The translations under genes were made by a program, and so were the position numbers. Source: Oleiharenicola lentus (GTDB lineage: Bacteria; Verrucomicrobiota; Verrucomicrobiia; Opitutales; Opitutaceae). From it: a DNA stretch of 64,000 bases. The stretch's first letter is position 1. Each line of letters begins with the position of its first letter. The DNA lies in the NCBI RefSeq assembly GCF_004118375.1, contig NZ_SDHX01000001.1, positions 310,001-374,000 on the forward strand, written 5' to 3'. Positions 5,457-60,044 of this stretch are shown here, piece by piece. Below the pieces are notes generated by a model. That model was not told the DNA's origin and made no database searches. It saw nothing but the letters and a program-made list of their open reading frames with translations.

Positions 5457-7663
5457 GGGGTGAAGGACCGGCCGTTGAGCGTGACGTTCGTCGCGGTGAA
5501 GTCGCGGACGGGGCCGCGCTCGAATTTGTCGTCGGCGAGCGTGAGGGTGACATTTTCCAGGCGGATCCCGCTGAGGTCATCGCCCTCGTTGCCGCGCAGG
5601 CGGCCAAGCGTGCCGTAGCGGCCGGTGACGTTGCGCAGCGTCACGCCCGCGACGGAGCGGGCGGGCGGCGGGTGGCCCTTGAGGTCGAAGAACTGCGTCC
5701 ACGGCGCCACGTCGAAGATCCGGCCGTCGCCGTCGAGCGTGATGTTCTCGAACACCAGGTTCTCGTAACGCTGCGGGGTGTCGGGGCGGAGCTTGAGGCG
5801 GACGAGGTTGTTCTTCCCGGCGACGGTGCAGTTGCGGACGGTGACGTTGCGCACGACCGTGGCCTCGCTGCCGCAGGTGACCACGCCGTGGCCGGCGCCG
5901 AAGGTGCAGTCCTCGACGAGGATGTTTTCGACGGGCGGGCTCGATTCGTCGCGGTCGGCGAGCGGGCCCTTGGTGCCCTTGAGGGCGATGCAGTCGTCGT
6001 CCACTGCAATCTTGCAGCGGCGGATGACGACATCGCGGCAGCTGTCGAGGTCGATGCCGTCGCTGCTGGGCGCGCGCACGGGTCCGGCCCTGGCTCCGGG
6101 CGAGAAGATGTCGAGCCCCTCGAGGAGCACGTCGCGGCAGCGGTAGAGGTGGATGTTCCAGAACCCGGAATCGCGGAGGACGACGCCGGTGATCCGCACG
6201 TCGGTGCAGGTGTCGAGGTGGACGAGGCGCGGGCGCTCGACCTCGAGGTTGGTGCACTGCGGGTTTTCCTTCCGGCGCTGCCAGAAGGCGGCCCAGAAGA
6301 GCGTGCCGTTGCCGTCGAGTTTGCCCGGGCCGGTGATGCGGACGCCGGTGAGGTTGGTGCCGTTGACGAGGGCGAGGCGCCACTCGGGGAAGTGGCCCTC
6401 GATGCGCGTGCGCTGCTTCGGGTAGTGCTCGATGTTGTTCGAGCCGAGCAGGACCGCACCCTCGGCGAGGTGGAGCTCGACGCCTGGTCGCAGGAAGATC
6501 GAGCCGCTCTTGAACGTGCCCTGGGGAATCACGACGCGCCCGCCGCCAGCCGCGTGGGCGGCGTCGAGGGCGGCCTGGATCTGGACGGTGTTGAGCGTGC
6601 GCGCGTCGCCGAGCGCGCCGTAGGCGGTGATCGGAAAATCACCGCCGGCGGCGACCGGGTCGTCGGGGCGCGGCACGCCGAAGTCGGGCGTGCCGTCGGC
6701 GCGCCAGCGCACCGCCTGCACGCGCGTGTGGCGGTTCGGGTCCTTCAGCGGGTCGCCCGCGACCTGCGGGTAGCTGCGGGCGTGATAGACGATGAGGTCG
6801 GTTACGCCGTCCTCGGCGACCGTGAAACAGTGGTGGCCCGGACCGTAGATCTTGTTTGCCTCGCTGGTGACGAAGACCGGCTCGGGCGACTTGGTCCACG
6901 ACTTGGGGTCGAGCAGGTCGGCGTCCTCGCTCGCGGTGAGCATCCCCACGCAATACTCCGGCCCCGTGCCGGCGGCGGAGTAGGTGAGGAAGAGGCGGCC
7001 GTTTTTGCGCAGCATCATCGGGCCCTCGTTCACGGCATAGCGGACCTGTTCCCAGGGGAACTCGGGTTTAGACAGCAGCACGGCCGGGCCGCCGAGGGTG
7101 GTGGGCGTGGCCAGGGGTGCGATGTAGAGGTTGGTGTTGCCCTTGATGCCCGGCTGCTGCTGCGCCCAGAGCAGGTAGCGCTGGCCGCGGTGCTCGAAGA
7201 CCGAAGCGTCGAGCGCGAAGGATTCCCAGCCGGTCTTGAGCTGTCCGCGCTCGATCCACTCGCCTTGGAACGGATCGGCGGAGGCGTTTTCGAGCACGTA
7301 GATACGGATGTTCCAGATCTTCTCCGCCTCGCCGGCGGCGAAATACACATACCACTTGCCGTCGAAGTGGTAAATCTCGGGCGCCCAGATGTGTGCGCCC
7401 ATGATGCCGGTGGCGTGCTTGCGCCAGATGACCTTTTCCTCGGCGGTGGCGAGGTCGGCGATGGTCGGCGCGCGGCGCAGGATGAGGCGGTCGTATTCCG
7501 GCACCGTGCCCATGAAGTAGTATTGCCCGTCCGTGTGCCGCAGGATGTGCGGGTCGGCGCGCTGGCGGACGAGCGGGTTGGGGTAGTCGGCGGCGCGGGC
7601 GACGGGGGTGGCCCACGGAACACACAGAATACACAGAACGAGGAAACAGGTCCGGGAAATCAT
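5453..7663 (-). CDS. GH43-GH28 fusion glycosidase (exported)
   Basis: A 736-residue fusion. After the signal peptide the N-terminal half (to about residue 330) is a GH43-type five-bladed propeller, with RADPHIL carrying the likely catalytic Asp and WAPEIYHFDGKWY typical of arabinanase/xylosidase folds. The C-terminal half, from about residue 345 (DFPITAYGALGD), is a GH28 polygalacturonase-like beta-helix with DGIDLDS, DDDCIALKG, GAGHG and VRLKL, so all four GH28 motifs are recognisable. It could strip a neutral side-chain sugar and hydrolyse a uronic-acid backbone. The start at 7663 puts an AAGGA Shine-Dalgarno just upstream. The hydrophobic core of the signal peptide (FLVLCILCVPWA) is encoded by a repeat arm. 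Confidence 0.88.
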   Translation of the reverse strand: MISRTCFLVLCILCVPWATPVARAADYPNPLVRQRADPHILRHTDGQYYFMGTVPEYDRLILRRAPTIADLATAEEKVIWRKHATGIMGAHIWAPEIYHFDGKWYVYFAAGEAEKIWNIRIYVLENASADPFQGEWIERGQLKTGWESFALDASVFEHRGQRYLLWAQQQPGIKGNTNLYIAPLATPTTLGGPAVLLSKPEFPWEQVRYAVNEGPMMLRKNGRLFLTYSAAGTGPEYCVGMLTASEDADLLDPKSWTKSPEPVFVTSEANKIYGPGHHCFTVAEDGVTDLIVYHARSYPQVAGDPLKDPNRHTRVQAVRWRADGTPDFGVPRPDDPVAAGGDFPITAYGALGDARTLNTVQIQAALDAAHAAGGGRVVIPQGTFKSGSIFLRPGVELHLAEGAVLLGSNNIEHYPKQRTRIEGHFPEWRLALVNGTNLTGVRITGPGKLDGNGTLFWAAFWQRRKENPQCTNLEVERPRLVHLDTCTDVRITGVVLRDSGFWNIHLYRCRDVLLEGLDIFSPGARAGPVRAPSSDGIDLDSCRDVVIRRCKIAVDDDCIALKGTKGPLADRDESSPPVENILVEDCTFGAGHGVVTCGSEATVVRNVTVRNCTVAGKNNLVRLKLRPDTPQRYENLVFENITLDGDGRIFDVAPWTQFFDLKGHPPPARSVAGVTLRNVTGRYGTLGRLRGNEGDDLSGIRLENVTLTLADDKFERGPVRDFTATNVTLNGRSFTP
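7611..7640. repeat. Family E repeat arm inside a signal-peptide coding region
   Basis: One arm of the family E element (GCCCACGGAACACACAGAA...), lying entirely within the GH43-GH28 gene. Read on the minus strand it encodes VLCILCVPWA. Complete elements with both arms are at 21316, 49509 and 59899. Confidence 0.8.
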
Positions 7664-7670
7664 TCCTTGG

Positions 7671-7738
7671 TGGGCGGTGAGCTTGCTCACGCCACGAATG
7701 ATGCGCGAGTTTCGTGGCGCCAGCAAGCTGGCCGCCCA
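7671..7738. repeat. Long imperfect inverted repeat (family K, one copy)
   Basis: Arms TGGGCGG...AGCTTGCT...CGCCACGAA pair with TTCGTGGCG...AGCAAGCT...CCGCCCA around a short centre. No second copy was noticed in this window. Confidence 0.75.
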
Positions 7739-7851
7739 CGGGGCAGGGTGGGTTCCCTCGTTCAGGCGGGGGTGGGGCATGGGCAGGAAGAATCAGACGA
7801 AACCTCCGCCGCGGCAAACGGTAACTCGTCTTACTGTCCGGCGGGTTTGAG

Positions 7852-7974
7852 GGTGGAGCGACCTGCTCCCCAGGGCGCTTTCCGCGAGCGGGTATTCTTG
7901 GCGCGTTGGGGAGCCGTTTCGGCAGGCTCAAGGCCCTGAGCTCGTCGAACGGGCAACGCGCGCCACCTTGGGCG
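7852..7974. repeat. Family J repeat, copy 1, interrupted by a family I element
   Basis: Begins GGTGGAGCGACCTGCTCC and continues GGCGCTTTC ... GCGTTGGGGAGC. It is then interrupted by a family I element at 7914-7953 and seems to resume as AACGCGCGCCACCTT. The intact relative is at 40042. Together with the inverted repeat at 7671 this fills the 313-bp gap 7664-7976, in which I see no gene. Confidence 0.7.
7914..7953. repeat. Family I repeat, copy 1
   Basis: Contains TTCGGCAGGCTCAAGGCC followed by CTGAGCTCGTCGAACGGG. A close relative is at 44447. Both copies sit inside another repeat. Confidence 0.7.
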
Positions 7975-7976
7975 CG

Positions 7977-9065
7977 CTATTTGGCCGGCGCCTCTGAAGG
8001 CAGCTCGGGCACGTTCGCCAGATCACGGTCGAGCGCGGCGCCGTCGAAGGGAATCACGATGACCTTGTTGCCGTGACGGTCGCCGCCCTTCTCCTCGTTC
8101 TTCGGGACGTCGAGCACCGCGAGGGTGACGGCGACGACGTGGCCGTTCTCGATGACAACGCCGGGGCGCTCGAGCTTGTCCCAGCGGTTCACGGTGCCGT
8201 CGGTGTAGCGCACGAAATCCACGCGCGGATCGTAGGCGAGGCCGCGCAGCGTCCAGCCGGTGATGCCGTCCTTGGACGTCAGGTGAAAGGCCTTCCGCTG
8301 GCTCCAGCTGTTGACGACGATATGGTAGCGGCCGCCGCTGAACCAGATGCAGGGATCCTCGAGGTCGCGCTGTTCGAGGCCCGCGATCTTCGGATAAACG
8401 CTCGGCCCCTGGGCGTGGTAGGGACCGAGGATGCCGGTTTTGCTGAGGAAGATCTGGCCGGAGCGCGGCACGATCATGAAGTCGCCGTCGGGCCGCACCA
8501 TGATGCTGTAGTTCGAGGCGCGCTTGCGCACGTCGCCGTGCGTGACGATGCCGCCGAGGTGCGTCCAGGGTCCGTCGGGTGAATCGGAGACGAACACATC
8601 GCCTTGGCGCGTCTCGCTGACGACGACCGCGTAACGTCCGTCGGGCAGGCGCAGCGCGGTGACGTTGTGGCCCTTGCCGCCCTGGTTGTCGGGCCACATC
8701 GGGCCGCGGTCCACGTAGGGCCCGAGCAGGTGATCGCTGAGCGAGCTCACGCCGATCGAATCCTTCCAACCGTCGTGGCCGCGGGCCTCGTCCCAGCGCG
8801 AGGCGTAGAGGCGGTATTTGCCGTCGTCGCCGCGGAGGATCTGGCCGTCCCAGTAACAATACTTGTTGGTCACATCCTCCAGGCCGTTGTGCACGTCGCG
8901 GGGCAGCGCGCCCGGAGCGCCCCAGGTTTCCGCCGTGAGCGGACCGCGGGCGGGAATGGGACGGAAGTAGTCGATGAACGATTTGGCCGGCGCGGCGGGC
9001 CCAGTCGTGTCGGCGTAGAGCGCGACGCCGAGCGTCGCGCCGAGGAGCACACGGATGATTTTCAT
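7977..9065 (-). CDS. Exported beta-propeller glycosidase-like protein
   Basis: A 362-residue protein with a short signal peptide (MKIIRVLLGATLGVALYA). The body has the repeated blade pattern of GH43/GH32-like five-bladed propellers: YCYWDGQILRGDDGKYRLYAS, GHNVTALRLPDGRYAVVVS and LEDPCIWFSGGRYHIVV. I cannot assign a named family. The catalytic acids are probably among the Asp/Glu in DGQILRGDDG and LEDPCIW (inference). Its ATG at 9065 overlaps the stop of the GH29 gene (ATGA), so it is coupled to that enzyme and probably acts on the same oligosaccharides. The open frame extends further upstream, but that part is a shadow of the GH29 gene. Confidence 0.72.
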   Translation of the reverse strand: MKIIRVLLGATLGVALYADTTGPAAPAKSFIDYFRPIPARGPLTAETWGAPGALPRDVHNGLEDVTNKYCYWDGQILRGDDGKYRLYASRWDEARGHDGWKDSIGVSSLSDHLLGPYVDRGPMWPDNQGGKGHNVTALRLPDGRYAVVVSETRQGDVFVSDSPDGPWTHLGGIVTHGDVRKRASNYSIMVRPDGDFMIVPRSGQIFLSKTGILGPYHAQGPSVYPKIAGLEQRDLEDPCIWFSGGRYHIVVNSWSQRKAFHLTSKDGITGWTLRGLAYDPRVDFVRYTDGTVNRWDKLERPGVVIENGHVVAVTLAVLDVPKNEEKGGDRHGNKVIVIPFDGAALDRDLANVPELPSEAPAK

Positions 9066-10747
9066 CGGAGCGAAACCTTGAACACCACGGGGCCGGCCGG
9101 GCCGGCGGGCGCGCCGGCGTCGAGCTTGAGGGCGGCGGCGGTTTGCGTCCACTTCACCGGCGCGGCGGAACCGAGGAGTTCCACGCTGGCGATGGCGCGG
9201 TCGAGGTGGCCGGCAGCGGTGCCGAGCGCGGCGACGGCCAGCGGCGCGGTGGGGCGGACGAGGCCGATGATGTAGAGCGTGCGACCGTCCTTGGACTGCG
9301 TGAAGCGCAGATCGTCGGCGGTGTAGGGTTTGCCCTTGCCCTCGTTGAAACCCTGGGCGCTGAGGGCGGCGCCGGCGGAGGCCGGGCCCTCGCCGAAGAT
9401 TTTCCACGGGCGCGTGGCGAAGATGGCCTCGCGGTTCACGTCCATCCACGTGGCGATGCCTTCGACCACGGCGAGACTGGCGTCGTCGGGCGTGCCGTCG
9501 CCGCGGAGCGGGATGTTGAGCAGGAGGTTGCCGTTCTTGCTGACGATGTCGGCCAGCATCTGGAGGACGGTGGCGGCACTCTTGTAGCGGTTTTCGTCGG
9601 CGATTTTCTTTTCGTAGTGCCAGCTGCCGATGCAGGTGCAGGTCTGCCAGGGGAGCGGCTGGATGTCATTGGGTGCGCCGCGCTCAACGTCCCACACGAG
9701 GGCGCGCTTCTGGTCGGCGGTGAGCACCTTGCCGAAGATGACGTTGTCGGCCCTGCCGCCGTTTCGCGCAGCGCCCTGGTTGTAATAATGCGCGGCGATC
9801 TTCAGGCCGGCGTCGCTCACGGGCCAGAGGGGTAGGGCGGTATCGTCGAAGTAAAGCAGGTCGGGCCTGAACGTGTTGATGAGATCCATCGTGCGGTGGT
9901 AGAACCGCTCACTGTAAGCTTGGTCGGGCGGGCTAACGCCGTTGCCCCAGTCCCAGCGTTCGTGGATCTTGAGCGGCTCCGCGAAGCCCTCGGCCGGCGC
10001 ATGGCGTTGCTCGTAGAGATCCTGCGGATCGAGGCCCTCCCACCACTGGCCCTTGCCGTCGGCGGCAGTGAGCCTGCCGTCGTAGGGCACGCCGGCGAGC
10101 GGGCCTTCCTTGTCCGCGCCCTGCGCGGGTTCATACCAGCTCCAGGCATGGGCGGCGTGGACGCTGACGCCGAACTTCAGGCCGTTGGCGCGCGCCGCCC
10201 GGGCCCAGCCGGCGATGAGATCTTTTTTCGGGCCGACGCGGACCGAATTCCACGGCTGGTATTTCGAGTCCCAGAGGTCGAGGTTGTCATTATGATTGGC
10301 GAGGGCGAAAAAATACTGGGCGCCCGCGCGCTTGTAGAGGGCGACGAGCTTGTCGGGATTCCAGTTCTCGGCCTTCCAGCGGTGGATGACGTCCTTGAAG
10401 CCGGCCTGCGAGGGGTGACCGTAGGTCTCGCGGTGAAAGGCCGTGACGTTGGGCCCCCACGCCGGGCCATTTTCGAAATACAGGTGGCGTGCATACCAGT
10501 CGCCCATGCCGGGTTCGCACTGGGGACCCCAGTGGGCCCAGATGCCAAACTTCGCGTCGCGAAACCATTCTGGCGCCTCGTAGCCGCGCAGCGATTCCCA
10601 GGTCGGCGCAAACGGGCCGGCGGCGACGGGCTCGCGTGCGGTGCTGACAATAACGGATGGCGTGGCGTTGCTCGGGATCGAGGCAAGGCCGGGGAGGGCG
10701 GATGCGACAAAGGACAGCGCCAGCAGTGTGGCAGCACGGGTATTCAT
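9062..10747 (-). CDS. Alpha-L-fucosidase-like glycoside hydrolase, GH29 (exported)
   Basis: A 561-residue GH29-type protein with signal peptide MNTRAATLLALSFVASALPGLAS. The family start WFRDAKFGIWAHWGP is clear, and the nucleophile Asp is expected in PDLLYFDDT, where many family members have PDxxWFDG. The usual K-H-H-D-G-F motif is N-H-N-D-N-L here, so one conserved substrate-binding His is Asn and specificity may be altered. A C-terminal beta-sandwich follows the barrel. It probably removes terminal L-fucose or a related sugar from pectic side chains, which fits the fucose catabolic genes at 43142-48364 (inference). Confidence 0.88.
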   Translation of the reverse strand: MNTRAATLLALSFVASALPGLASIPSNATPSVIVSTAREPVAAGPFAPTWESLRGYEAPEWFRDAKFGIWAHWGPQCEPGMGDWYARHLYFENGPAWGPNVTAFHRETYGHPSQAGFKDVIHRWKAENWNPDKLVALYKRAGAQYFFALANHNDNLDLWDSKYQPWNSVRVGPKKDLIAGWARAARANGLKFGVSVHAAHAWSWYEPAQGADKEGPLAGVPYDGRLTAADGKGQWWEGLDPQDLYEQRHAPAEGFAEPLKIHERWDWGNGVSPPDQAYSERFYHRTMDLINTFRPDLLYFDDTALPLWPVSDAGLKIAAHYYNQGAARNGGRADNVIFGKVLTADQKRALVWDVERGAPNDIQPLPWQTCTCIGSWHYEKKIADENRYKSAATVLQMLADIVSKNGNLLLNIPLRGDGTPDDASLAVVEGIATWMDVNREAIFATRPWKIFGEGPASAGAALSAQGFNEGKGKPYTADDLRFTQSKDGRTLYIIGLVRPTAPLAVAALGTAAGHLDRAIASVELLGSAAPVKWTQTAAALKLDAGAPAGPAGPVVFKVSLR

Positions 10748-10892
10748 GGGCGGTTGGGGGTTACCGACTACGCAAGGGGCTGGGGCCCACCCTGTAGATT
10801 CCGGGCGGCTGCGCCACTCCCGTCACATGGAGATAGCGGGCCCAATAATGGATAAGATGGGCGGAGGGTGATAGGGCAGTCTTAACCAAGAT

Positions 10893-10976
10893 GTAGCCGC
10901 GCTTGAGTCCCGCGTCTGCGGGACGAAAGCGTGGTCAGTGGACAACCACGTTGTCGCTACGCTCCAACGCGGCTAC
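10893..10976. repeat. Family B inverted repeat, copy 2
   Basis: An 84-bp element running GTAGCCGCGCTTGAGTCCCG ... CTCCAACGCGGCTAC. Its reverse complement matches the other family B copies nearly end to end. It lies upstream of the GH29 gene start and beyond the end of the next gene. Confidence 0.9.
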
Positions 10977-10994
10977 AGTTCAAATTGGTTCCGG

Positions 10995-12014
10995 CTACCG
11001 CGGCGCCCTCAGCATCACATGCGTTGGCGTGTTGCGGTCGCAGGAGAGCACGCCGTCCTTTTCGACGAGTTCGACGACCTGGATGGAGCTGCGGCGGAGA
11101 TCGAGCGATTCCTTGTCCTCGGGCCGGATCGTGCCGGCGCGGCCGGGGTGGGTGAAATAGAACACATAGGCGCGGTCGCCGCTGACCACGACGCCGGGGT
11201 GGCCGCCGTTCACGCCGTCGTCGGCGCCGGTGCCGGGCACGCCGAGCAGGTCGCCGCTTTGAGCGGTCCAGGTTTCGAGATCGGTGGAGCGATAAACGCC
11301 GAGGCCCTTCCACAGGTCCACGAGCATCCAATACGCGCCGCGCCAGCGAAAGACGTAGGGGCCTTCGCCCGGACGTTCGCCGACGCCGGTGCACTTGCCC
11401 TTGTCGGTCCACGTGAAGAGGTCGGGGCTGTCGGCGTAGTAGATGGATTTCCGGTCGCGCTCGTTGTTATACCACAGGCGCCAGCCACCGCCGGGCAGGG
11501 CGTGGACGCCGGCGTCGATCACGCGGTCGGACGCGAGCGTGAGGGCGGACTCGTATTTCCACTTCCGTAGGCCGGTGCTCGTGAGGTGGACGATGCGGCG
11601 CGGGTGCTGCCAGTTCTCGAACACTCCTGGCACAACGGTGAGGAACATGTGGTGCTTGCCATCCGGCGCAGTGATAACGTCCGGCGCCCAGTGCGTGGGC
11701 TCGGCGCCGCCGATCTCGGGCGGCAGCTCGATGTCGGCGGTGCCGAGGTAGGTCCACTTCGCACCGTCGGCCGACTCGGCGATGCCGATCTTGCAGCCGT
11801 GAACCCAGGCCACGCCGGAGAGGCCGGGCTGGTTGGCGCGGCGGTTGGTGTAGAACATCCACCAGCGTTCCGCCTTGGGATTCCAAATCACGACCGGATC
11901 GGCCGCGCCGTCGTAAACCGGATCGCGGAAGAGCGGCTTGGGGGCGACGGAATCCGCATGTAACCACGAAAAACACGAAAAACACGAAAGCAGAACCAGC
12001 ACCCGCAGCGTCAT
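10995..12014 (-). CDS. Exported GH43-like beta-propeller glycosidase
   Basis: A 339-residue five-bladed-propeller protein. The pattern YDGAADPVVIWNPKAERWWMF near the N-terminus, THWAPDVITAPDGKHHMFLT and GEGPYVFRWRGAYWML is that of GH43/GH117-like glycosidases, with likely catalytic residues in GAADP, WAPD and GEGP. The substrate is probably an arabinose- or galactose-type terminal sugar of pectin (inference). The ATG at 12014 lies inside a family C repeat, and the h-region of the signal peptide (VLLSCFSCFSWLHA) is encoded by a family H repeat arm. Without these repeats the gene would lack an export signal, so the start could also be an upstream or rare codon. Confidence 0.75.
   Translation of the reverse strand: MTLRVLVLLSCFSCFSWLHADSVAPKPLFRDPVYDGAADPVVIWNPKAERWWMFYTNRRANQPGLSGVAWVHGCKIGIAESADGAKWTYLGTADIELPPEIGGAEPTHWAPDVITAPDGKHHMFLTVVPGVFENWQHPRRIVHLTSTGLRKWKYESALTLASDRVIDAGVHALPGGGWRLWYNNERDRKSIYYADSPDLFTWTDKGKCTGVGERPGEGPYVFRWRGAYWMLVDLWKGLGVYRSTDLETWTAQSGDLLGVPGTGADDGVNGGHPGVVVSGDRAYVFYFTHPGRAGTIRPEDKESLDLRRSSIQVVELVEKDGVLSCDRNTPTHVMLRAPR
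11961..11990. repeat. Family H repeat arm inside a signal-peptide coding region
   Basis: TAACCACGAAAAACACGAAA plus a further AACACGAAAG. On the minus strand it encodes LSCFSCFSWL of the GH43-like enzyme. A related arm pair surrounds the repeat at 34539. Confidence 0.75.
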
Positions 12015-12103
12015 CCTGAGCCCAGCGAAGGATCCAAGGGAATCTTCGCAAACGAAATCATCCCCGTCGCTCCGGTTGCATCCTTTGCGCGGCTCAGGAT
12101 GAC
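12010..12103. repeat. Family C inverted repeat, copy 1
   Basis: Arms GTCATCCTGAGC...GCGAAGGATCCA and TGCATCCTTTGCGC..GGCTCAGGATGAC. The left end contains the start codon of the GH43-like gene. This is one of seven copies in the window. Confidence 0.88.
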
Positions 12104-12201
12104 AGACCAGGGGGATGGAATCAGAACAACGGGGTAGGGGCATGGGTGGAGATTAGCCGGCGGGCGCGCAGTGGCAAACGGCGGGTTGCCTTACAGTCAG
12201 G

Positions 12202-12253: not shown

Positions 12254-12259
12254 GAGCAG

Positions 12260-12285: not shown

Positions 12286-12291
12286 TCAAAA

Positions 12292-12320: not shown

Positions 12321-12345
12321 GGGAGAGACGGAGGTCAAAGGACGC

Positions 12346-17112: not shown

Positions 17113-17134
17113 AGCAAAACCAACAAACCTTCTG

Positions 17135-17312
17135 ACCACGGATTACACAGATGATCACGGATACAAACCCAACCCCCGCAACCTGTCATCCTGAACGCAG
17201 TGAAGGATCCAAGCGATTCGGGCGCCATGCCTCCTTGGATTCTTCGCACGGCTCAGAATGACGCAGCGCATATGATTCTTCCATCAGTGTCCATCCGTGC
17301 AATCCGTGGTTA
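17135..17312. repeat. Family D inverted repeat, copy 1, with a family C element inside
   Basis: Outer arms ACCACGGATTACACAGATG and CCGTGCAATCCGTGGTTAA are separated by the complete family C element 17185-17262. It ends 17 bases before the start of the bifunctional aldolase gene. Confidence 0.88.
17185..17262. repeat. Family C inverted repeat, copy 2 (nested in family D)
   Basis: GTCATCCTGAACGCAGTGAA paired with TTCTTCGCACGGCTCAGAAT and a final GAC. Confidence 0.88.
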
Positions 17313-17329
17313 ACCTCCCTTTTTCCAAC

Positions 17330-22870: not shown

Positions 22871-22880
22871 TGAGACATTG

Positions 22881-23054
22881 ACCACGGATAACACAGATGA
22901 GCACGGATCAATCTCATTACTCTCGTTCCCGTCATCCTGAGCCGGGCGAAGGACCCATGCCGACGGATAGATTTCCTTGGATGCTTCGCACGGCTCAGCA
23001 TGACGCTACGGAGGTTTTGCCTCTATCGGTGCCCATCCGTGCAATCCGTGGCTA
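22881..23054. repeat. Family D inverted repeat, copy 3, with a family C element inside
   Basis: ACCACGGATAACACAGATGA ... CCGTGCAATCCGTGGCTAA around the family C element 22931-23004. Same D(C) order as at 17135 and 35927. Confidence 0.88.
22931..23004. repeat. Family C inverted repeat, copy 4 (nested in family D)
   Basis: GTCATCCTGAGCCGGGCGAA ... TTCGCACGGCTCAGCATGAC. Confidence 0.88.
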
Positions 23055-23076
23055 AAATGACTTGGTCGATCCCCTC

Positions 23077-25489: not shown

Positions 25490-27967
25490 TCAGTCCGCCC
25501 GCAGCGCGATGATCGGGTCCACCGTGGCGGCGCGGCGCGCGGGCAGCCAGCTCGCCAGACCGGCGACGACGAGGAGGGTTGCGCTCACCGCGAGGTAGGA
25601 CAGCGGATCGGAGGCGGTGATGTCGAACAACAGCGCCTGCAGCGAACGCGTGAGAAACCAGGAACCGAGCAGGCCCGCGCCCAGGCCGCACGCGGTTTTC
25701 CAGAGGCTCTGGTTCAGGACGAGGCTGACGATCTGCGCGCGCGTCGCGCCCAGGGCGCCGCGAATCCCGATCTCCCGGGTGCGTTGCGTGACATCGTAGG
25801 CGAGCACCCCGTAGAGGCCGATGGCGGCGAGCAGCAGCGCAAACCCGGAAAACACCGCCAGCAGCAGCATGATGCCGCGCCGGGGCAGCAGCATGCTGTC
25901 GATGCCTTCCTGCAGCGATCCCGTGGCATAGAGCGGCAGCGTGGGATCGATGGCGCGCAGCTTGGTCCGGATGTCCCGCAGGATGTCGGCTGTCGGCCGC
26001 GCCGATCGCACGATCACGTTGAAGCCCGGTGTCTGCCCTCCGTTGGTCGGCAGGAAAATGAACGGCAGGCTGTCGCGCTGCTCCAAGCCGCGGAGGTTGG
26101 CGCGGTTCACCACGCCCACCACCCGGGGCCAGACGTAGTTCGCCGGGCGCTCCCCCGCGCCGGGGCCGAGTTCACGGCCGAGGACAAGCCGGTCGGCGGA
26201 GTAGCGTTCGACAAAGGTCTGGTCCACCACGACCACGGGTTCCTTGGCCAGGTCGTCGGCCTCGGTGAAGCCCCGACCCTCCAGCACCCGCATGCCCATG
26301 GCTGCGAAATACTCCGGAGAGACGAAATAGATGTAGGCGAGGGGCGGGGTCTCACCGGCCCCGCGCGGGTCGTCGCGGATGACAAACGGCACGCCCGTGA
26401 TGTTCGGCACCAGCACGAAGCCACCGACCTGGGCCGCGTTTTCCACCCCGGGAATTTCCCGCAGGGCCGCCTGGATCCGGCGCTGGACATCGAGGTTGGC
26501 CTCCTTCTCGCGGTAACGCGGCGGCAGTGCGATCCGCCCCTGCACGATGCGGGCCGCATCGAAACCGGGATCCACGGCGAGCACCTTGGCAAAACTGCGG
26601 ATCATCAGCCCCGCGCCCACCAGGAGGACCGTCGCCACCGCCACCTGCGTGACCACGAGCAGGCTGCTCGCCGTCCGGCCCCCGCTGCCGGTCGTGGCCG
26701 CGCGGTTGTCGCCGAGGCGCAGGCCGGTCCGCCACAGCAGCAGGTGGGGGAGCAGGCCGATGACGACGGAGACCAGCGCGGCCGCCGCGATCACCGCCGC
26801 GACCACGGACCACGGCAGGGTCACGGGCGGCGCCATGCGCGAGATAAGCGGCAGGTAGAGGTTAAACATTTGGATCGCCCCCGCCGCGAAGCCCAGGCCC
26901 GCGATCGTCGCCGCCCCCGTCAGGAGGGCGCTTTCCATCAGCACCTGGCGCAGCAGTGTCAACTGTCCGGCCCCGAGCGCCACGCGGATGGCGAGTTCGG
27001 CGCGCTTGGCGTTCAGGCGCGCCAGGAAGAGGTTCACCACGTTGACGCCGCCGATCAGGAGCACAAGGAGCGCGCCGCCCTGCAGCAGCCACAGGAGCTT
27101 CATGTCGCCGACCACCTCGCCGGGCCCGAGCGGCGTTGCGGCGAGGCGGTAGCCCCCGGCCTCGAGAAAGGTGCGCAGTTGCGGGCCGGCCTGTTCGTCG
27201 CGGAAGCGGCGCTCGAGCGCCGTGAGCTGCTCGAGCCCGGCCGAGAGCGCGACCCCCGGCCGCAGGCGGGCATACAGGATGCAATCGCGGCTGTAGCGAG
27301 CCTCGGGCCGCAACCGGTGGGGCGGGGGCGCGTAGGGCTGGAAGAAGCAGGTGGGCTTGGACAGGACCGCCAGGCTGGGCGGTGCCACCCCCACGATCGT
27401 GTAGTCGAGTCCTCCGGCATGGAGCACGCGGCCGATGACCCCCGGGTCGCCCTGATAGTGGCTTTGCCAAAAATCATGGGAGAGCACCAGCACGCGGTCG
27501 CGGCCGGGCGTCTCCTCCTCGGGCGTGAAGAACCGCCCGAGCAGCGGCTTGACCCCGAGCAGGTCAAAGTAGTCGGCCGACACCCAGTCATTGGGGATGC
27601 GGATCGGCACCTCCTCGTTGTCGAGGGTGATGTTCTGGTGCTGGATCACGGCGAACCCCGCGAACAGGTCCGCGTGTTCCTTGAAGTCGCGATATTGCGG
27701 CATGCTGCCCTGCGCGACCTGGCCAGCGTTCTTGTCGGCCACGTTCGAGATGATGTGGAGGCTGCCGGGGTCGGGGAAGGGCAGCGGCTTCAGCACCAGC
27801 GCGTGGAGGGCGGAGAGGATCGCGGTGTTGGGCCCGATGCAGACGAGCAGCGTGCAGCCCACCGCCAGGCTGAAACCCGGCGCCCGGCGCAGGGAGCGCA
27901 GCGAGAAACGCAGGTCGCTCCGCCAGGCATCCAGCCAGCGCCCGAGCGAGGTGGGGTTTGAGGGCAT
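25490..27967 (-). CDS. Orphan ABC-type permease, MacB/FtsX (ADOP-like)
   Basis: An 825-residue inner-membrane protein with two FtsX-type permease units, each preceded by a MacB-like periplasmic domain. The N-terminus SDLRFSLRSLRRAPGFSLA followed by GPNTAILSALHALVLKPLPF is the hallmark of Acidobacteria-type duplicated orphan permeases. The C-terminus SWLPARRAATVDPIIALRAD is the usual ending. No ATPase gene is adjacent. The frame is open further upstream through a 7-bp tandem repeat, but the ATG at 27967 starts the conserved part. The substrate is unknown. Confidence 0.85.
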   Translation of the reverse strand: MPSNPTSLGRWLDAWRSDLRFSLRSLRRAPGFSLAVGCTLLVCIGPNTAILSALHALVLKPLPFPDPGSLHIISNVADKNAGQVAQGSMPQYRDFKEHADLFAGFAVIQHQNITLDNEEVPIRIPNDWVSADYFDLLGVKPLLGRFFTPEEETPGRDRVLVLSHDFWQSHYQGDPGVIGRVLHAGGLDYTIVGVAPPSLAVLSKPTCFFQPYAPPPHRLRPEARYSRDCILYARLRPGVALSAGLEQLTALERRFRDEQAGPQLRTFLEAGGYRLAATPLGPGEVVGDMKLLWLLQGGALLVLLIGGVNVVNLFLARLNAKRAELAIRVALGAGQLTLLRQVLMESALLTGAATIAGLGFAAGAIQMFNLYLPLISRMAPPVTLPWSVVAAVIAAAALVSVVIGLLPHLLLWRTGLRLGDNRAATTGSGGRTASSLLVVTQVAVATVLLVGAGLMIRSFAKVLAVDPGFDAARIVQGRIALPPRYREKEANLDVQRRIQAALREIPGVENAAQVGGFVLVPNITGVPFVIRDDPRGAGETPPLAYIYFVSPEYFAAMGMRVLEGRGFTEADDLAKEPVVVVDQTFVERYSADRLVLGRELGPGAGERPANYVWPRVVGVVNRANLRGLEQRDSLPFIFLPTNGGQTPGFNVIVRSARPTADILRDIRTKLRAIDPTLPLYATGSLQEGIDSMLLPRRGIMLLLAVFSGFALLLAAIGLYGVLAYDVTQRTREIGIRGALGATRAQIVSLVLNQSLWKTACGLGAGLLGSWFLTRSLQALLFDITASDPLSYLAVSATLLVVAGLASWLPARRAATVDPIIALRAD

Positions 27968-28086
27968 GCGGCGTCCGCAGAGATGACCGGGTCCCACTCC
28001 CGGTGCAACCCTGGAGGGAATTTTCCACAGGAGGTAACGAAGGGAACGGAGAGAGTGGACGACAGGCCAAGGACCAGGGACTATCT

Positions 28087-28148
28087 GACCACAGACCACA
28101 GACCACAGACCACAGACCACAGACCACAGACCACAGACCACAGACCAC
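28087..28148. repeat. 7-bp tandem repeat GACCACA, nearly nine units
   Basis: Eight complete GACCACA units plus GACCAC, located between the divergent permease and hydrolase genes. The unit length is not a multiple of three. The flanking sequence is also repetitive (CTGACCCCTGACTTCTGACA, and AGGTTTCACACCCTCACACC). Confidence 0.95.
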
Positions 28149-35806: not shown

Positions 35807-35926
35807 CGGAGCGCGGCAGCGCGAAGATGGCATGGCGAAGCCATGGCCGGAGGCCGACTGAGTCGGGCGCCCTGTGGGCAGGCGAAGGAGCAAACCTGAG
35901 GGCTGAGGACGGCAGGCGGCTGCTTG

Positions 35927-36099
35927 ACCACGGAATACACGGTTGGGCACGGATAGAGGAATAATTTGTGGCGCGTCATGCTGAGCCGGGCGAAGCATCC
36001 AAGGGAATCTGCACATCGGCTTGGATCCTTCGCACGCTCAGGATGACGGAGCAAAAGTGACTGGTTGATCTGTGACCATCTGTGTCATCCGTGGCCAAA
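35927..36099. repeat. Family D inverted repeat, copy 4, with a family C element inside
   Basis: ACCACGGAATACACGG ... CCATCTGTGTCATCCGTGGCC around family C copy 35975-36047. With the family G copy and a GNAT fragment it makes up the 504-bp gap 35807-36310. Confidence 0.82.
35975..36047. repeat. Family C inverted repeat, copy 5 (nested in family D)
   Basis: GTCATGCTGAGCCGGGCGAA ... GGATCCTTCGCACGCTCAGG then ATGAC. Confidence 0.88.
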
Positions 36100-53588: not shown

Positions 53589-53624
53589 CCCCGCTTGGTT
53601 GCCGAAAGTCCGACCTGGACAAGG

Positions 53625-53654
53625 AAAAGGCCGCTCACCCCTGAGCGGCCTTTT
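53625..53654 (+). terminator. Intrinsic terminator
   Basis: AAAAGGCCGCTCA and TGAGCGGCCTTTT form a perfect 13-bp stem with a four-base loop, ending in a T-run. It is 36 bases after the hydrolase stop and can also act for the opposite strand behind the tRNA. This is the clearest terminator in the window. Confidence 0.9.
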
Positions 53655-53762
53655 GATTTCTAACACACACTGAATTTACCCTAACACCAAAATGAACGAT
53701 TGAACGTAGTGTAAGACGCGGGGGGTGGGGAAACGTTCGAGAATTTCTCAAAATTCTCATTT

Positions 53763-53838
<76 letters not shown>

Positions 53839-53929
53839 CTGTCTAGCCAGAAATGTGCGACCCGGTTGCGGGGGCGCGAGCCAATTTACCTTCCGAAAAA
53901 CAAAGCCCGGCCTGCGGCCGGCGGTCATT

Positions 53930-54988: not shown

Positions 54989-55371
54989 GGGAGCGCCCGA
55001 GGGGGGCGCGTTGAGGGTTCGCGGAGTAGGGCAGGGGCTTCAATGTCGGAAAGCACAGTCGCTCGGAAAAGTTGTGCAACAAAATAAACACAATTGCTTA
55101 GAAATGTACGCATAGAATTACTTAAATAACTTTAAGTATATTGTAAGTTAGTAACTTAAAGTATGCTCTAGTATAAAAACAGTAATGCAACAAACTATGC
55201 ACATAAAATTTGACAGATGTGCACATCGGGCGCTCCCTTTTAGGCAGATATTCGGTCCCCTCCGAATGCAATCCTCCCCAACCCCAACCCTCTCGGTCTG
55301 CTGACGTGCGTTTGTTTCCGTCGTTGGAAATCGTCGCCGTGAGTTGCTCCGAGTTCACCAAACCACCCCCC
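54989..55371. promoter_or_regulatory. AT-rich divergent control region with several palindromes
   Basis: A 383-bp gap whose centre (about 55050-55215) is much richer in A and T than anything else in the window. It has TACTTAAA / TTTAAGTA at 55119-55138, AAGTTA-G-TAACTT at 55145-55157, and TGCACAT / ATGTGCA flanking TTGACA at 55210. These are candidate LacI-type operators and promoter parts for the repressor and the TonB receptor. No gene is seen. Confidence 0.55.
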
Positions 55372-58266
55372 ATGAACCTCAAACAGCGTTCCGCCTACTA
55401 CGCGGGATTAATGATTGGCGCGGCCGCGCTTTCGACGTGGCCGCTCGTGGCTTCCGCCCAGCAGGCGGCCACATCTTCGACTCCGACCAAGGAGGAAGAG
55501 GAAAAAGTCGTGCACCTGTCCCCCTTCGTCGTCACCACGACCAAGGACAAGGGCTACCTCGCCACCAACTCCATCTCCGGCACGCGCCTCGACACGGCGA
55601 TCAAGGAGCTGCCGATGCCCATTGAGGTCATCACCGAGCAGTTCCTGCGCGACACCGGTTCCACCGACCTGCGCCAGAGCCTCCGCTACAGCGCCGGCAT
55701 CATCCTGCAGTCGCAAAACGACCAGGGTTCCAATGCCTTCTCGGGTGCGGGCGGCGTCCACAACCCCGAGGGCGTCACGGCCAACAAGACCCAGTCGTCC
55801 TACAAGATTCGCGGCTACATTTCCGACGTGGTTCTGCGCGACGGCTACCGCCGCCAGAGCGCGACCGATTCGATCAACATCGGCCGCGTGGAGGTCATCC
55901 GCGGACCGGCCGCGCTGCTTTACGGCATCGGCAACTTCGGCGGCATTGTGAACTACCTGCCGAAGACCCCGCAATCCAAGCAGCACACGGACCTCGGCCT
56001 CGTCTATGGCAGCCATGACTTCAAGCGCGCCTGGCTCGACACCACCGGCCCCCTCATGGGCGACGGCAAGGCCGCCTACCGGGTCACCGCCGCCTGGCAG
56101 GACGGCGGCGACCACACCGAGCTCTTCAACGAGAATCACTGGTTCATCTCCCCCAGCGTCAACTTCAAGCCCTTCCCCAAGACCGACATCACGGTCGACT
56201 TCGAGGCGGGCGAACAGGAAATGACCGGTCTCGGCTTCCTGAGCGTGCGCGCCCGGTCCGACATCGACGGCATCGGCCAGGCCGACCGCCTCCAGAGCTC
56301 CGGCTTCGTCGAGTTTGCCGGCAAGGACAACCGCACCTTCCGCTGGTCCGGTCCCGACACCTTCCGCCGCTCCTATTCGGACAATCTCCGGATCCAGCTC
56401 ACGCAGGAGCTCGTGCCGGGCCTGAACCTGCTCGCCGGTTACAACCGCTCCAACGTGGATTTCTACGTGCGGGACGTGAACGGCTCCATGCGGCAGAACA
56501 TCGGCCCCGTCGCCCTCCGCGACACCATCACCGTGATCCCGATCGACGTGGCCAACGGCAGCAGCGAGTTCTCCCGCTCGCAGGCGCCCAACACGATCTT
56601 CGAATACCTCTGGTCGCACAACAAGGAGGAGAACACCCGTGAGCAGGCCCGCGTCGAACTCAACTGGGCGTTCAAGCTGTTTGAGGACCGCAAGTGGCTC
56701 AAGATCGACAACAGCTTCCTCGTGGGCCGTTCCGTCGAGAAGGCCGACCGCATGACCCGGCTGAATCGCAACCCGAACAGCCTCTTCAACTACAAGAAGC
56801 CCACGGACACCTCCTACATCCGCTACGGCAAGCAGGGCGACGGCACGCCCGATGTGGGCACGCTGGACATCAACCGCATCAACGCCATGGCGGAAAACAC
56901 CGGCGACTACGCGATTTATCAGGGCAAATTCCTCGATGATCGCCTGGTGCTCGTAGCCGGCCTCCGCCGCGACAAGAATGACAACACCGTGGACACCGCG
57001 GTCTTCCACCCGACGCCCAGCACCAGCTCGGTCAGCCGGCCTTCCCAGAGCGAGGACACCAAGCAGTTCGGCGTGACCTTCCGGATCACCCCGCGCATCA
57101 GTGTTTACGCGCTCCAAGCCGAGGGCCTGCAGCCCAACTTCGACGGCCTCCGTGATCCCGCGGGCGATCCCCTCGGGCCCACGATCGCCAAGAGCAAGGA
57201 GGTCGGCATGAAGGTTGATTTCTTCGAGGGCCGCATTTCCGGCACGATCAGCAAGTTCAAGATCGAGCGCTCCGGCGTGCCCTTCGGCCAGTGGTGGATG
57301 CCCACGTTGAAGAACACCTTCGACGCGAACCGCCCCATCATCTACAACGTCGGCAACTTCAGCCCCGGCAGCGTGCCCGGCGGCAGCAACGGCGGCAACG
57401 GCGCCGCCGACGCCGCCCTCCCGCAATGGAACGCCGGCGTCACGGCGGGCGCCATCTACCAGAAAAACGGCCAATGGTATGTCAACGCCTCCCAGACCAC
57501 CGGCGCGGCGTATCTCGACCGCGTGTTCAACCTGACCAAGACCACCAACCCCGGCTGGCCGGGCTGGCTCTACATCGCGGACGCCGAGACCAACAACAGC
57601 TGGGAAGACCGCGGTGACGGCAACGGCTACCAGTCCTATGTGCAGCAGCAGGACGAATCCGACGGTTGGGACGCCCAGCTGATGTTCACGCCCAACGACA
57701 ACATCCAGGTGGTGCTGAGCTACGCCCACACCAAGCGCACCATCACCAACCCGGGCAAGTTCATCAAGTATCCGCATCCCGAGAACCGCTGGGCCATCTG
57801 GTATTTCCCGGACAGCAACTGGGGCCTCACCGGCTACTCCCTGGACGAGGTCTACACCGACCCGGCTGACACCTCCACCTGGACCGGCATCGGCTGGGGC
57901 GCGGGCCAGAGCCGCGACGACACGCCGAAGCACTCGGTCAGCGGCTGGGCCAGCTACCGCTTCACCGAGGGCAGGCTCAACGGCCTGACCTTTGGCATCG
58001 GCGGCCAGTGGGAATCCGAGCGCGAGTATTTCTCGGGCATCACGGTCGCGGGTCAGAAGCAGACCAACGGCAAGGGCGAGCTCACCATCCTCAAGCACAA
58101 GGCCCGCCTCAACACCGACCTCATGGTCCGCTATCCGTTCAAGATCAGCGACCGCGACGCGTTCGTGCAGCTCAACGTCAACAACATCGCGGACGACAAG
58201 GACCTCTACGGCCTGATCTACGCCCCCGGGCGCAACATCAAGGTCGAGTTCGGCTACAGCTTCTAA
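55372..58266 (+). CDS. TonB-dependent outer-membrane receptor
   Basis: A 964-residue receptor. The signal peptide ends around SAQQA (residue 30). VVHLSPFVVTTTKDKGYLATN takes the place of a TonB box, and the plug starts with SGTRLDTAIKELPMPIEVIT. VIRGPAALLYGIGNFGGIVNYLPK is the classical plug end, and the barrel finishes with FGYSF, an aromatic C-terminus. The LSPFVV start is common in Opitutaceae receptors. It would import oligosaccharides across the outer membrane for the GH16 and beta-helix enzymes downstream, probably beta-glucan-derived (inference). Confidence 0.94.
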   Translation: MNLKQRSAYYAGLMIGAAALSTWPLVASAQQAATSSTPTKEEEEKVVHLSPFVVTTTKDKGYLATNSISGTRLDTAIKELPMPIEVITEQFLRDTGSTDLRQSLRYSAGIILQSQNDQGSNAFSGAGGVHNPEGVTANKTQSSYKIRGYISDVVLRDGYRRQSATDSINIGRVEVIRGPAALLYGIGNFGGIVNYLPKTPQSKQHTDLGLVYGSHDFKRAWLDTTGPLMGDGKAAYRVTAAWQDGGDHTELFNENHWFISPSVNFKPFPKTDITVDFEAGEQEMTGLGFLSVRARSDIDGIGQADRLQSSGFVEFAGKDNRTFRWSGPDTFRRSYSDNLRIQLTQELVPGLNLLAGYNRSNVDFYVRDVNGSMRQNIGPVALRDTITVIPIDVANGSSEFSRSQAPNTIFEYLWSHNKEENTREQARVELNWAFKLFEDRKWLKIDNSFLVGRSVEKADRMTRLNRNPNSLFNYKKPTDTSYIRYGKQGDGTPDVGTLDINRINAMAENTGDYAIYQGKFLDDRLVLVAGLRRDKNDNTVDTAVFHPTPSTSSVSRPSQSEDTKQFGVTFRITPRISVYALQAEGLQPNFDGLRDPAGDPLGPTIAKSKEVGMKVDFFEGRISGTISKFKIERSGVPFGQWWMPTLKNTFDANRPIIYNVGNFSPGSVPGGSNGGNGAADAALPQWNAGVTAGAIYQKNGQWYVNASQTTGAAYLDRVFNLTKTTNPGWPGWLYIADAETNNSWEDRGDGNGYQSYVQQQDESDGWDAQLMFTPNDNIQVVLSYAHTKRTITNPGKFIKYPHPENRWAIWYFPDSNWGLTGYSLDEVYTDPADTSTWTGIGWGAGQSRDDTPKHSVSGWASYRFTEGRLNGLTFGIGGQWESEREYFSGITVAGQKQTNGKGELTILKHKARLNTDLMVRYPFKISDRDAFVQLNVNNIADDKDLYGLIYAPGRNIKVEFGYSF

Positions 58267-58280
58267 GGTTCTTATGAAAT

Positions 58281-58355
58281 GTAGCCGCGTTGAGGCGGAG
58301 CGACAACGTGGGGTCCGTCCGACCACGCTTTCGTTTTCGCCTCCAGCGCGGCTAC
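58281..58355. repeat. Family B inverted repeat, copy 5
   Basis: GTAGCCGCGTTGAGGCGGAG ... CGCCTCCAGCGCGGCTAC, between receptor and symporter genes. Confidence 0.9.
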
Positions 58356-58521
58356 CCCGCCAACAAGTCTAAGGTCAAACTGGGTTAACGGGCGCGCACC
58401 GGCATTGGGTCCGGTGCGCGCCACTCCCCGCCGGCTTTTCCACTTCCGATGCCCGCCCAGCGGGCGCATCGTCGGGTCCGGGCGGTGGCCGCGCCACCGT
58501 CCTTCCCACCCCATCCCCCTC

Positions 58522-59892
58522 GTGACCACCACTCCCCCCGCCCGTCTCTCCTTCCGGGAAAAGTTCGCCTACGGCCTCGGCGACACCGCCTGCAATTTTT
58601 GCTTCCAGGCGATCAACATCTTCCTGGCGATCTACTACACGGACACCTTCGGGCTCGATGCCGCCGCCGCCGGCACGCTCATGTTCGTCGTCCCGCTCGT
58701 CGTCGCCTTTCTCAATCCGGTCATCGGCGCGCTCGCCGACCGCACCGAGACCCGCTGGGGCAAGTTCCGGCCTTATATTCTTTGGGGCGCACTGCCCCTC
58801 GGGGTGCTGGCCTGGGTGCTCTTCGCCAGCCCTTCGCTCAGCCCGGGCGGCCGGCTGGCCTACGCCTACGTCACTTACACGCTCATCCTGGTGGTGTATG
58901 CGGTCGTGAACACGCCCTACGGCGCGCTGATGGGTGTGATGTCGCCCTCCTCCGATGACCGCACCTCGCTCAATTCCTACCGCTTTGCCTGCGCCTTTCT
59001 CGGCGCCTTCCTGATCGGCGGCTTCGTGCCCGACCTGAAGGCGGCGCTCACGCCCGCCGGCGGCTCGGCGGCCGACGGGTACCGCAACACCATGGCGATC
59101 TTCGCCGTGCTTTCGGTTGCCATGCTCCTGTTCACCTTCTGGAACACGCGGGAGCGCGTGGTGAACCCGCCCGAGCAGAAAAGCTCGCTGCGCGAGGACC
59201 TCGGCGACCTGAAGTCAAACTGGCCGTGGATGGTCCTCTTTTTCGTCGGCTTCCTGAATCTCGCCAACGTCGGCCTGCGCAGCGGCGCCGGCGCCTACTA
59301 CTTCAAGTATGTCCACGGCAACGAGGCGGCCATGGGCAATTTCAACAAGGTCGGCTTCCTTTGCTTCATCGCGGGCGCGCTGGCGACGAAGCTCTTCACC
59401 GCGCGCTGGTCGCGCCGCTCGCTCCTGATCGTGCTGACCCTGGTCAACGGGGGCGGCATGTTCGCCTGCTACTTCGTGGATCCGCAGAACCTGCCGCTCC
59501 TCTACGCCTGCAACATCATCGCAAGCTTCGCGGCCGGCCCGACCCCCGCCATCGTGTGGTCGCTCTACGCCGACACCGCCGACTATGGCGAATGGAAGTT
59601 CCGCCGTCGCGCCACCGGTCTGCTTATCTCGGCCATGGTGCTCGCCCACAAGATGAGCATGGCGCTCGGCGGCGCCATGATCGGCTGGCTCCTGGCCTAC
59701 TACGGCTTCGTCGCCAACCTCGATCAAACCCCGCGGGTGCTGCACGGCATATCCCTCATTTTCAACGTGCTCCCCGGGATCCTCGCGCTGGGCGCCGGTC
59801 TCGTCTCGATCCTCTACCCGCTCGATGAGGCCAAGATGAAGGAGATCGAGCGCGAACTCGCCGCCCGCAAGGGCGTGCCCGCCCCGGCCTGA
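58522..59892 (+). CDS. Sugar:cation symporter, GPH family
   Basis: A 456-residue major-facilitator-type protein of the glycoside-pentoside-hexuronide family with about 12 hydrophobic segments. LADRTETRWGKFRPYILWGALP is the family signature between helices 2 and 3, and WSLYADTADYGEW is the second one. It starts at a GTG (58522) after ATCCCCCTC. It would bring sugars released in the periplasm into the cell, downstream of the TonB receptor. Confidence 0.92.
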   Translation: MTTTPPARLSFREKFAYGLGDTACNFCFQAINIFLAIYYTDTFGLDAAAAGTLMFVVPLVVAFLNPVIGALADRTETRWGKFRPYILWGALPLGVLAWVLFASPSLSPGGRLAYAYVTYTLILVVYAVVNTPYGALMGVMSPSSDDRTSLNSYRFACAFLGAFLIGGFVPDLKAALTPAGGSAADGYRNTMAIFAVLSVAMLLFTFWNTRERVVNPPEQKSSLREDLGDLKSNWPWMVLFFVGFLNLANVGLRSGAGAYYFKYVHGNEAAMGNFNKVGFLCFIAGALATKLFTARWSRRSLLIVLTLVNGGGMFACYFVDPQNLPLLYACNIIASFAAGPTPAIVWSLYADTADYGEWKFRRRATGLLISAMVLAHKMSMALGGAMIGWLLAYYGFVANLDQTPRVLHGISLIFNVLPGILALGAGLVSILYPLDEAKMKEIERELAARKGVPAPA

Positions 59893-59898
59893 GTCATG

Positions 59899-60044
59899 GC
59901 CCACGGAACACACGGAACACACAGTATGAAACCCCACCGGATCTTCACCGCCCGCTCCTCCCGTAGCTTCGCCCGCGTTCTCCAACGCGTTTGGGCCGAT
60001 GCAATTCCCTGCGCGAAACGGCTTCTTCCGTGTGTTCTGTGGGC
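59899..60044. repeat. Family E inverted repeat, copy 4, inside the 5-prime end of the GH16 gene
   Basis: GCCCACGGAACACACGGAAC ... CTTCCGTGTGTTCTGTGGGC with an unusually long centre that contains GTAGCTTCGCCC. The right arm encodes PCVLWA of the signal peptide. Confidence 0.85.

What the first reader, a model, noticed from the sequence alone, without database searches (positions are those of the whole stretch)
7611..60044. Intergenic repeat arms encode signal-peptide cores of three glycosidases
In three unrelated exported enzymes the hydrophobic core of the signal peptide is encoded by an arm of an intergenic repeat: GH43-GH28 (7611-7640, VLCILCVPWA), GH43-like (11961-11990, LSCFSCFSWL) and GH16 (59899-60044, PCVLWA). 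All three use the same phase of the arm, with the repeat word GTGG read as xxG TGG, giving Cys, Val/Phe and Trp. In the GH43-like gene the start codon also comes from a neighbouring family C repeat. This looks like repeated capture of a mobile palindrome as a ready-made export signal.
Basis: partly seen in the sequence, partly recalled or inferred. Interest (0 to 1): 0.78.

Follow-up and report, generated by a model that had tools for sequence, protein, structure and literature searches.

The report
Repeat arms reused as signal peptides
In this bacterium, ends of a scattered palindromic DNA repeat have repeatedly become the start of genes for exported proteins and now spell out part of the export tag, so junk-like DNA appears to have been recycled as a working protein address label.

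Summary
In the three window genes (GH43-GH28, GH43-like, GH16) a 20-30 nt arm of a dispersed palindromic repeat is read in frame in the hydrophobic core of the signal peptide (SP). After the arm the next possible start codon lies inside the conserved part of the protein, or is absent from the first 90 codons, so the arm must be translated. Same-genus orthologues (79-81% identical) lack the arm and have other, ordinary SPs. The genome holds three more cases: g4 (no Pfam family), g5 (GDSL hydrolase), g6 (SBP_bac_5 lipoprotein). For g4, 9 of 35 sequences, own included, carry an arm in the SP; the tree needs at least 5 changes. At g2, g4, g5 and g6 a second repeat (family C) upstream supplies an in-frame ATG. 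"Same phase" is not general: g4 and g5 use the other hydrophobic phase. New context: such arms are the inverted ends of GxxExxY (PF13366) nuclease genes, each copy with its own matched left/right 9-mer wording. Precedent: Yersinia RU-2 forms part of the YPO1552 SP (Delihas 2007). Insertion, mobility and export are inferred. New variant of a known kind.

The parts
5453..7663 (-). g1, GH43-GH28 enzyme; SP MISRTCFLVLCILCVPWATPVARA|AD
   Evidence: Pfam PF04616 and PF00295; orthologue without arm L006
7611..7638 (-). arm (TTCTGTGTATTCTGTGTGTTCCGTGGGC on the - strand) encoding LCILCVPWA
   Evidence: (family D8); two differences from the right arm of this genome's GxxExxY element
7670..7740 (.). another palindromic repeat directly upstream of the g1 start codon
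   Evidence: Seen directly; not studied further
10995..12014 (-). g2, GH43-like enzyme; SP MTLRVLVLLSCFSCFSWLHA|DS
   Evidence: PF04616; orthologue without arm L036 and orthologue with a differently worded arm L038
11961..11990 (-). arm (CTTTCGTGTTTTTCGTGTTTTTCGTGGTTA on the - strand) encoding LSCFSCFSWL
12006..12104 (.). family C hairpin; its right arm CTCAGGATGAC contains the g2 start codon (12014-12012)
   Evidence: D2, D5
59926..60813 (+). g3, GH16 enzyme (alternative start 59896); SP ends RLLPCVLWALLLPSLSA|APS
   Evidence: PF00722; syntenic orthologue without hairpin L066
59899..59925 (+). left arm of the hairpin at the start of g3
   Evidence: (D8, I17)
60025..60044 (+). right arm of the same hairpin, encoding PCVLWA

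Best explanation
A dispersed palindromic element (arm of about three 9-mers, loop, inverted arm) lies in intergenic DNA of this genome, probably of the Opitutaceae. When it lands or survives across the 5' end of a gene for an exported protein, its T-rich right arm can be read in frame. In the wordings found at these genes (TTCCGTGTG, TTTCGTGTG and kin) two of the three frames are uncharged and give about nine mostly hydrophobic residues, enough for the core of a signal peptide. The start codon comes from the loop or from a family C hairpin upstream (an in-frame ATG at g2, g4, g5, g6), and the cleavage site or lipobox from the old gene. The original SP is thereby replaced and export kept. Because the unit is 9 bp, gain or loss of a unit keeps the frame. 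Arms of this kind flank GxxExxY (PF13366) PD-(D/E)XK nuclease genes, so the hairpins are most likely gene-less relatives of a GxxExxY element. Shown: in-frame arms, no later start before the conserved part (g1-g3), orthologues without arms, further cases, arms recurring at g4, arms at GxxExxY genes. Inferred: insertion, mobilisation by GxxExxY, translation and export.
For: In-frame arms; after the arm the next start codon is codon 51 in g1 (inside GH43), 42 in g2 (inside the part that orthologues share), none within 90 codons in g3. G113 orthologues without arms and with other SPs for g1, g2, g3, g4. Own-genome census of 134 of 153 arms by script: g4 and g5, g6. The g2 orthologue of G003 has LCVLCVLCV from another arm wording. 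g4: 9 of 35 sequences (own included) with an arm in the SP, at least 5 changes on the tree against 8.2 in shuffles; JAUPWC has three codons fewer there and keeps the frame. Best 9-mer hydropathy of the 16 arm-type SPs scored 2.3-3.6, of the four G113 SPs 2.4-3.0. GxxExxY: 52 of 61 family genomes, 20 of 21 genus genomes. The two flanks of one copy match: mean score 19.9 against 9.6 between copies, 25 of 30 loci above the highest of 49 GH control flanks (11.5); 19.2 against 8.7, 26 of 29 above 11.5. The own copy has a 30-bp perfect inverted repeat of the g1/g3 wording.
Against: No proteomics and no SP predictor. Arm in the SP by regex in 0 of 11 g1, 1 of 25 g2, 0 of 25 g3 and 0 of 29 g5 orthologue loci (for g1 and g2 I left out 18 and 4 loci, nearly all because they do not cover the N-terminus), so capture is rare per gene. 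In the 30 loci, ATG-plus-arm matches were mostly hairpin loops, not genes. Hydrophobic frames: 21 of 41 T-rich arm strands, but shuffled strands reach 58% (a first, cruder run gave 41% against 50%). No target-site duplication in 31 arm pairs. g4 and g5 have in-frame GTG codons in the arm, so translation could begin inside it. In the G147 sulfatase the most hydrophobic stretch lies after the arm. Flank test: only 15 of 30 loci exceed the 99th percentile of cross pairs, since copies share wordings. The G113 copy of g5 keeps a left-arm-like sequence upstream although its SP is not arm-encoded, so that element may be older than the split.
Confidence: 0.8

Rival explanations
1. The arms are untranslated 5' DNA and the true starts lie downstream; the frames are open by chance.
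For: Many arms in this genome lie just upstream of an ATG and look non-coding, e.g. C1:1461545 and C1:1679469. Arms are rich in GTG codons.
Against: In g1, g2 and g3 no ATG, GTG or TTG lies between the arm and the conserved part of the protein, and without the arm there is no SP. Nine g4 sequences keep the same frame.
Confidence: 0.08
2. The SP codons came first and only resemble the repeat (convergence of T-rich hydrophobic codons).
For: T-rich sequence of the same composition is as hydrophobic as the arms.
Against: Stretches of 20-30 nt in the wording of arms; matching left arms upstream at g3, g5, G037, G066, G025 and the G147 sulfatase; no such match in the G113 SPs.
Confidence: 0.04
3. 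A variant inside the main explanation: captured arms are neutral passengers. SPs tolerate almost any hydrophobic sequence, so the insertions survived without benefit.
For: SP sequences are known to be permissive (general knowledge). Two phases are used. Arms also appear to supply GTG starts to cytoplasmic RecD2-like and HAD/SerB-like genes.
Against: Recurrence of arms in sister species at g4 suggests maintained use, but does not show a benefit.
Confidence: 0.55

Closest known systems
Yersinia RU-2 / YPAL element in YPO1552 (Delihas 2007, PMC2759123 and PMC2229807; passages seen)
   Same: A small palindromic repeat forms part of a predicted SP, and homologues have unrelated signal sequences.
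   Different: There mainly one putative exported protein of 144 aa and a few other loci. Here six genes, several of them conserved enzymes, in one genome; an arm rather than the whole element gives the core; arms recur with changed wording at one gene across species.
Rickettsia palindromic elements (Ogata 2000, as told in PMC2229807; passage seen)
   Same: Palindromic repeats translated in frame inside conserved proteins.
   Different: Those are reported as insertions within reading frames of proteins; these arms rewrite N-termini of exported proteins.
REP/RAYT system (recalled; related titles and abstracts in the listing)
   Same: Short dispersed extragenic palindromes.
   Different: None of the 4 Y1_Tnp loci found here has an arm nearby; arms flank PF13366 genes instead.
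Bacterial MITEs (review PMC2229807; passages seen)
   Same: Short inverted-repeat elements without a gene, with a gene-bearing counterpart.
   Different: No target-site duplication found; the gene is a PD-(D/E)XK family protein, not a known transposase.

Membership tests
MITE | terminal inverted repeats | tested here: met
   31 own arm pairs, a few of which share or overlap arms
MITE | target-site duplication | tested here: not met
   0 of 31 with 3 bp or more
MITE | mobilised by a cognate transposase | not testable with these tools
   A gene-bearing counterpart with such arms exists; its activity is unknown
REP/RAYT | palindromes flank a RAYT (Y1_Tnp) gene | tested here: not met
   0 of 4 Y1_Tnp loci with a strict-pattern arm within about 1.5 kb
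Repeat-derived signal peptide (as RU-2 in YPO1552) | repeat in frame at the N-terminus, hydrophobic core, homologues with unrelated SP | tested here: met
   g1-g4 with G113 orthologues; by hydropathy and A-X-A rule, no SP predictor
Repeat-derived signal peptide (as RU-2 in YPO1552) | SP function shown by experiment | not testable with these tools
   No proteomics
GxxExxY / PDDEXK_3 (PF13366) | profile match and PD-(D/E)XK residues | tested here: met
   Own gene E 1.3e-40; G20, E23, D63, E73, K75 among the invariant columns of 46 sequences; model pLDDT 95.9; best Foldseek matches SSO0001 (E 3.4e-4), then LHK-Exo and lambda exonuclease (E 1.7e-3 and weaker)

The most novel reading that the evidence does not exclude
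GxxExxY nuclease genes are the core of a widespread selfish element whose inverted arms exist in copy-specific 9-mer wordings that are rewritten in place. Its gene-less hairpins act as a standing supply of start codons and signal-peptide cores, so that SPs of conserved exported proteins in this family are repeatedly captured, kept and re-worded as the arm wording changes (sister pairs G071/G037, G066/G025, G096/JANYCF at one gene).
Probability: 0.35. Interest if true: 0.85.

Novelty: new variant of a known kind. Interest (0 to 1): 0.62.

Why it matters
It gives a natural, repeatable route by which exported proteins renew their signal peptides from repeat DNA, testable by orthologue comparison at single genes. 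It also links a common class of intergenic repeats in these bacteria to a nuclease family (GxxExxY) whose name a full-text search found in only two papers (listing only).

Tried and rejected
RAYT origin of the arms: rejected. Finding more captures by an ATG-arm pattern over 252 family genomes: 63 genomes match. Of the 30 loci returned, only g1 (517 aa read) and L117 (280 aa, a chance match without a full arm) had an ORF over 102 aa from that ATG. Of 97 further matches copied from the list I chose 20 by eye and fetched them; none gave a clear SP capture. The G147 sulfatase turned up on the other strand of one locus. Period-9 hydrophobicity bonus: rejected. A candidate at C2:118414 looked non-coding by codon-position GC. 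Left undecided: L270, L271, L273 (possibly decayed arms, counted as no arm), L130, L226. L054 is a chance regex match. L344 and L360 (g5) have arms upstream of the start, not in the SP. 19 of the 153 own arms were not read. Papers: searches showed no report of arms at GxxExxY genes, and none of SP capture besides Delihas 2007; two searches listed only 12 of 2,383 and 8 of 4,880 matching papers, and only openly licensed PMC text is held, so this absence is weak.
Full report
CHECK. After the arm the next ATG, GTG or TTG is codon 51 in g1 (Pfam GH43 begins at residue 27), codon 42 in g2 (orthologues align from about residue 23), and none within 90 codons in g3. Pfam: g1 GH43+GH28, g2 GH43, g3 GH16. 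The genome (4.71 Mb, two contigs) has 153 matches of YGTGNNNTYYGTGG against 11 of the reversed pattern; 19 lie in the 64-kb window.

ORTHOLOGUES. The same-genus genome G113 has g1, g2, g3 and g4 at 79-81% identity. Its copies have no arm in the SP and other N-termini: MLASFALGCLLCLPLCAHA, MKSLLLPVLLALLAAPGLSPAFA, MKFLPALACFLSAFACATA and MKFPFRSPTAPALALFALLGVTLPA. The g3 site is syntenic: the upstream gene ends alike in both. In G113 the g2 gene has a family C half-repeat upstream but starts at its own ATG. Its g5 copy (75%) keeps a left-arm-like sequence upstream, with an SP that is not arm-encoded. So at g1-g4 the two lineages differ by repeat sequence in the SP; that the arm was gained here and not lost there is inferred. 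Arms in the SP were found by regex in 0 of 11 (g1), 1 of 25 (g2: L038 of G003, LCVLCVLCV, another wording), 0 of 25 (g3) and 0 of 29 (g5) orthologue loci. L054 in that list is a chance match, and L344 and L360 have arms upstream of the start. For g1 and g2 I left out 18 of 29 and 4 of 29 loci, nearly all because they do not cover the N-terminus.

MORE CASES. A script screened 134 of the 153 arms of this genome for reading frames through them, and I read the candidates. Besides g1-g3 there are g4 (C1:2318083 +, 751 aa, no Pfam family), MFLRPNPPFVYFVCFVVTCLGLRA|D; g5 (C1:305524 -, 438 aa, GDSL hydrolase)...SHLFALLVFFVAIPALAPA|E; and g6 (C2:578256 +, 536 aa, SBP_bac_5), MTRYGILCLSCFLWPFLAS|C, a lipoprotein-type SP. 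At g2, g4, g5 and g6 a family C hairpin lies upstream and its CTCAxxATGAC supplies an in-frame ATG; in g4 a second ATG follows 24 nt later and may be the true start. In 1.58 Mb, one search finds ten places where a family C right arm is followed by an A arm, three of them g2, g4 and g5; g6 differs slightly from that regex. A sulfatase of G147 has a complete hairpin inside its N-terminus, but its most hydrophobic stretch lies just after the arm. Arms also appear to supply GTG starts to a RecD2-like helicase (C1:586291 -) and a HAD/SerB-like hydrolase (C1:3017502 -), so the effect is on gene starts in general and not on SPs alone.

RECURRENCE AT g4. Of 35 distinct g4 sequences with a readable 5' end (own included), 9 have an arm in the SP: own, JAUPWC (L337), G037 (L338 shows the same sequence), G071, G096, JANYCF (L339), G066, G025, G062. 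I assigned these by eye; the regex finds 7 of the 9, misses G096 and G066, whose right arms are degenerate, and also marks L270, which I counted as no arm. On a quick tree of the mature parts the label needs at least 5 changes; shuffles average 8.2, with 3 to 4 of 500 as low. So arms recur in sister species and were gained or lost several times; the count cannot tell gain from loss. Within the pairs G071/G037, G066/G025 and G096/JANYCF the wording differs although the phase is the same. JAUPWC (91% identical to g4) has three codons fewer in the SP, as for one 9-mer unit, and keeps the frame.

WHAT THE ARMS ARE. GxxExxY genes (PF13366) occur in 52 of 61 sampled family genomes and 20 of 21 genus genomes. 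Their flanks form inverted repeats of the same period-9 kind. In 30 family loci the score of a copy's own two flanks averages 19.9 against 9.6 between copies; 25 of 30 exceed 11.5, the highest of 49 GH control flanks, but only 15 of 30 exceed the 99th percentile of cross pairs, since copies share wordings (recount). In 29 genus loci the means are 19.2 and 8.7, with 26 of 29 above 11.5. The own copy (C1:1846134-1846511) has a perfect 30-bp inverted repeat of the wording seen at g1 and g3. The protein has G20, E23, D63, E73 and K75 invariant in 46 sequences; its model (pLDDT 95.9) matches SSO0001 best and then lambda-type exonucleases (that SSO0001 is a Cas4 protein is recalled). No solved structure matches the profile by sequence at E 0.01. 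The hairpins lack target-site duplications (0 of 31 arm pairs), so I do not file them as MITEs.

MECHANISM AND LIMITS. The right arm read on its T-rich strand gives up to about nine uncharged, mostly hydrophobic residues; the loop or a family C arm gives the start; the host gene gives the cleavage site. Best 9-mer scores of 2.3-3.6 for arm-type SPs compare with 2.4-3.0 for the four G113 SPs; in g2 the best 9-mer lies half upstream of the arm. The property follows from composition: 21 of 41 T-rich arm strands of GxxExxY elements and 0 of 41 A-rich strands have a hydrophobic uncharged frame, but shuffled T-rich strands do so as often (58%; one search was a cruder run). Whether capture is adaptive or merely tolerated is open. 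Insertion, translation and export are inferred.

KNOWN. RU-2 in Yersinia YPO1552 is a published repeat-derived SP with homologues of unrelated signal sequence (PMC2759123, PMC2229807; passages seen). So the kind is known; what looks new is its recurrence in one genome, use in conserved enzymes, recurrence with changed wording at one gene, and the tie to GxxExxY. The searches showed no report of these, within open PMC text and partly capped lists.

Noticed in passing
L185-L214, L235-L263 (59 GxxExxY loci): GxxExxY genes sit at recurrent places: 13 of 59 upstream of a gatB-like gene and 7 upstream of an FtsX-like permease gene (own copy included), with different arm wordings at the same place (gene names from recalled motifs). 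By eye more loci precede a hemL-like gene than the regex counted.
   Followed up: partly
L200, L256, L251, L242, L243, L244, L259: Within one genus, at the same site upstream of the permease, the GxxExxY arms come in three wordings (CCACGAAAC, CCCACGGAAC, CCCGCGAAT), both arms changed together.
   Followed up: partly
own C1:586291 (-) and C1:3017502 (-): GTG codons of an arm appear to be the start codons of a RecD2-like helicase and a HAD/SerB-like hydrolase.
   Followed up: partly
window 17133-17313, 22879-23055, 35925-36098: Nested composite: a family C hairpin inside the loop of an A-type hairpin, three times.
   Followed up: partly
window 1-64000: 19 of the genome's 153 arm matches lie in this 64-kb window, 1.4% of the genome.
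   Followed up: no
window 28087-28142: Tandem GACCACA repeat near the start of the ORF 25490-28141.
   Followed up: no
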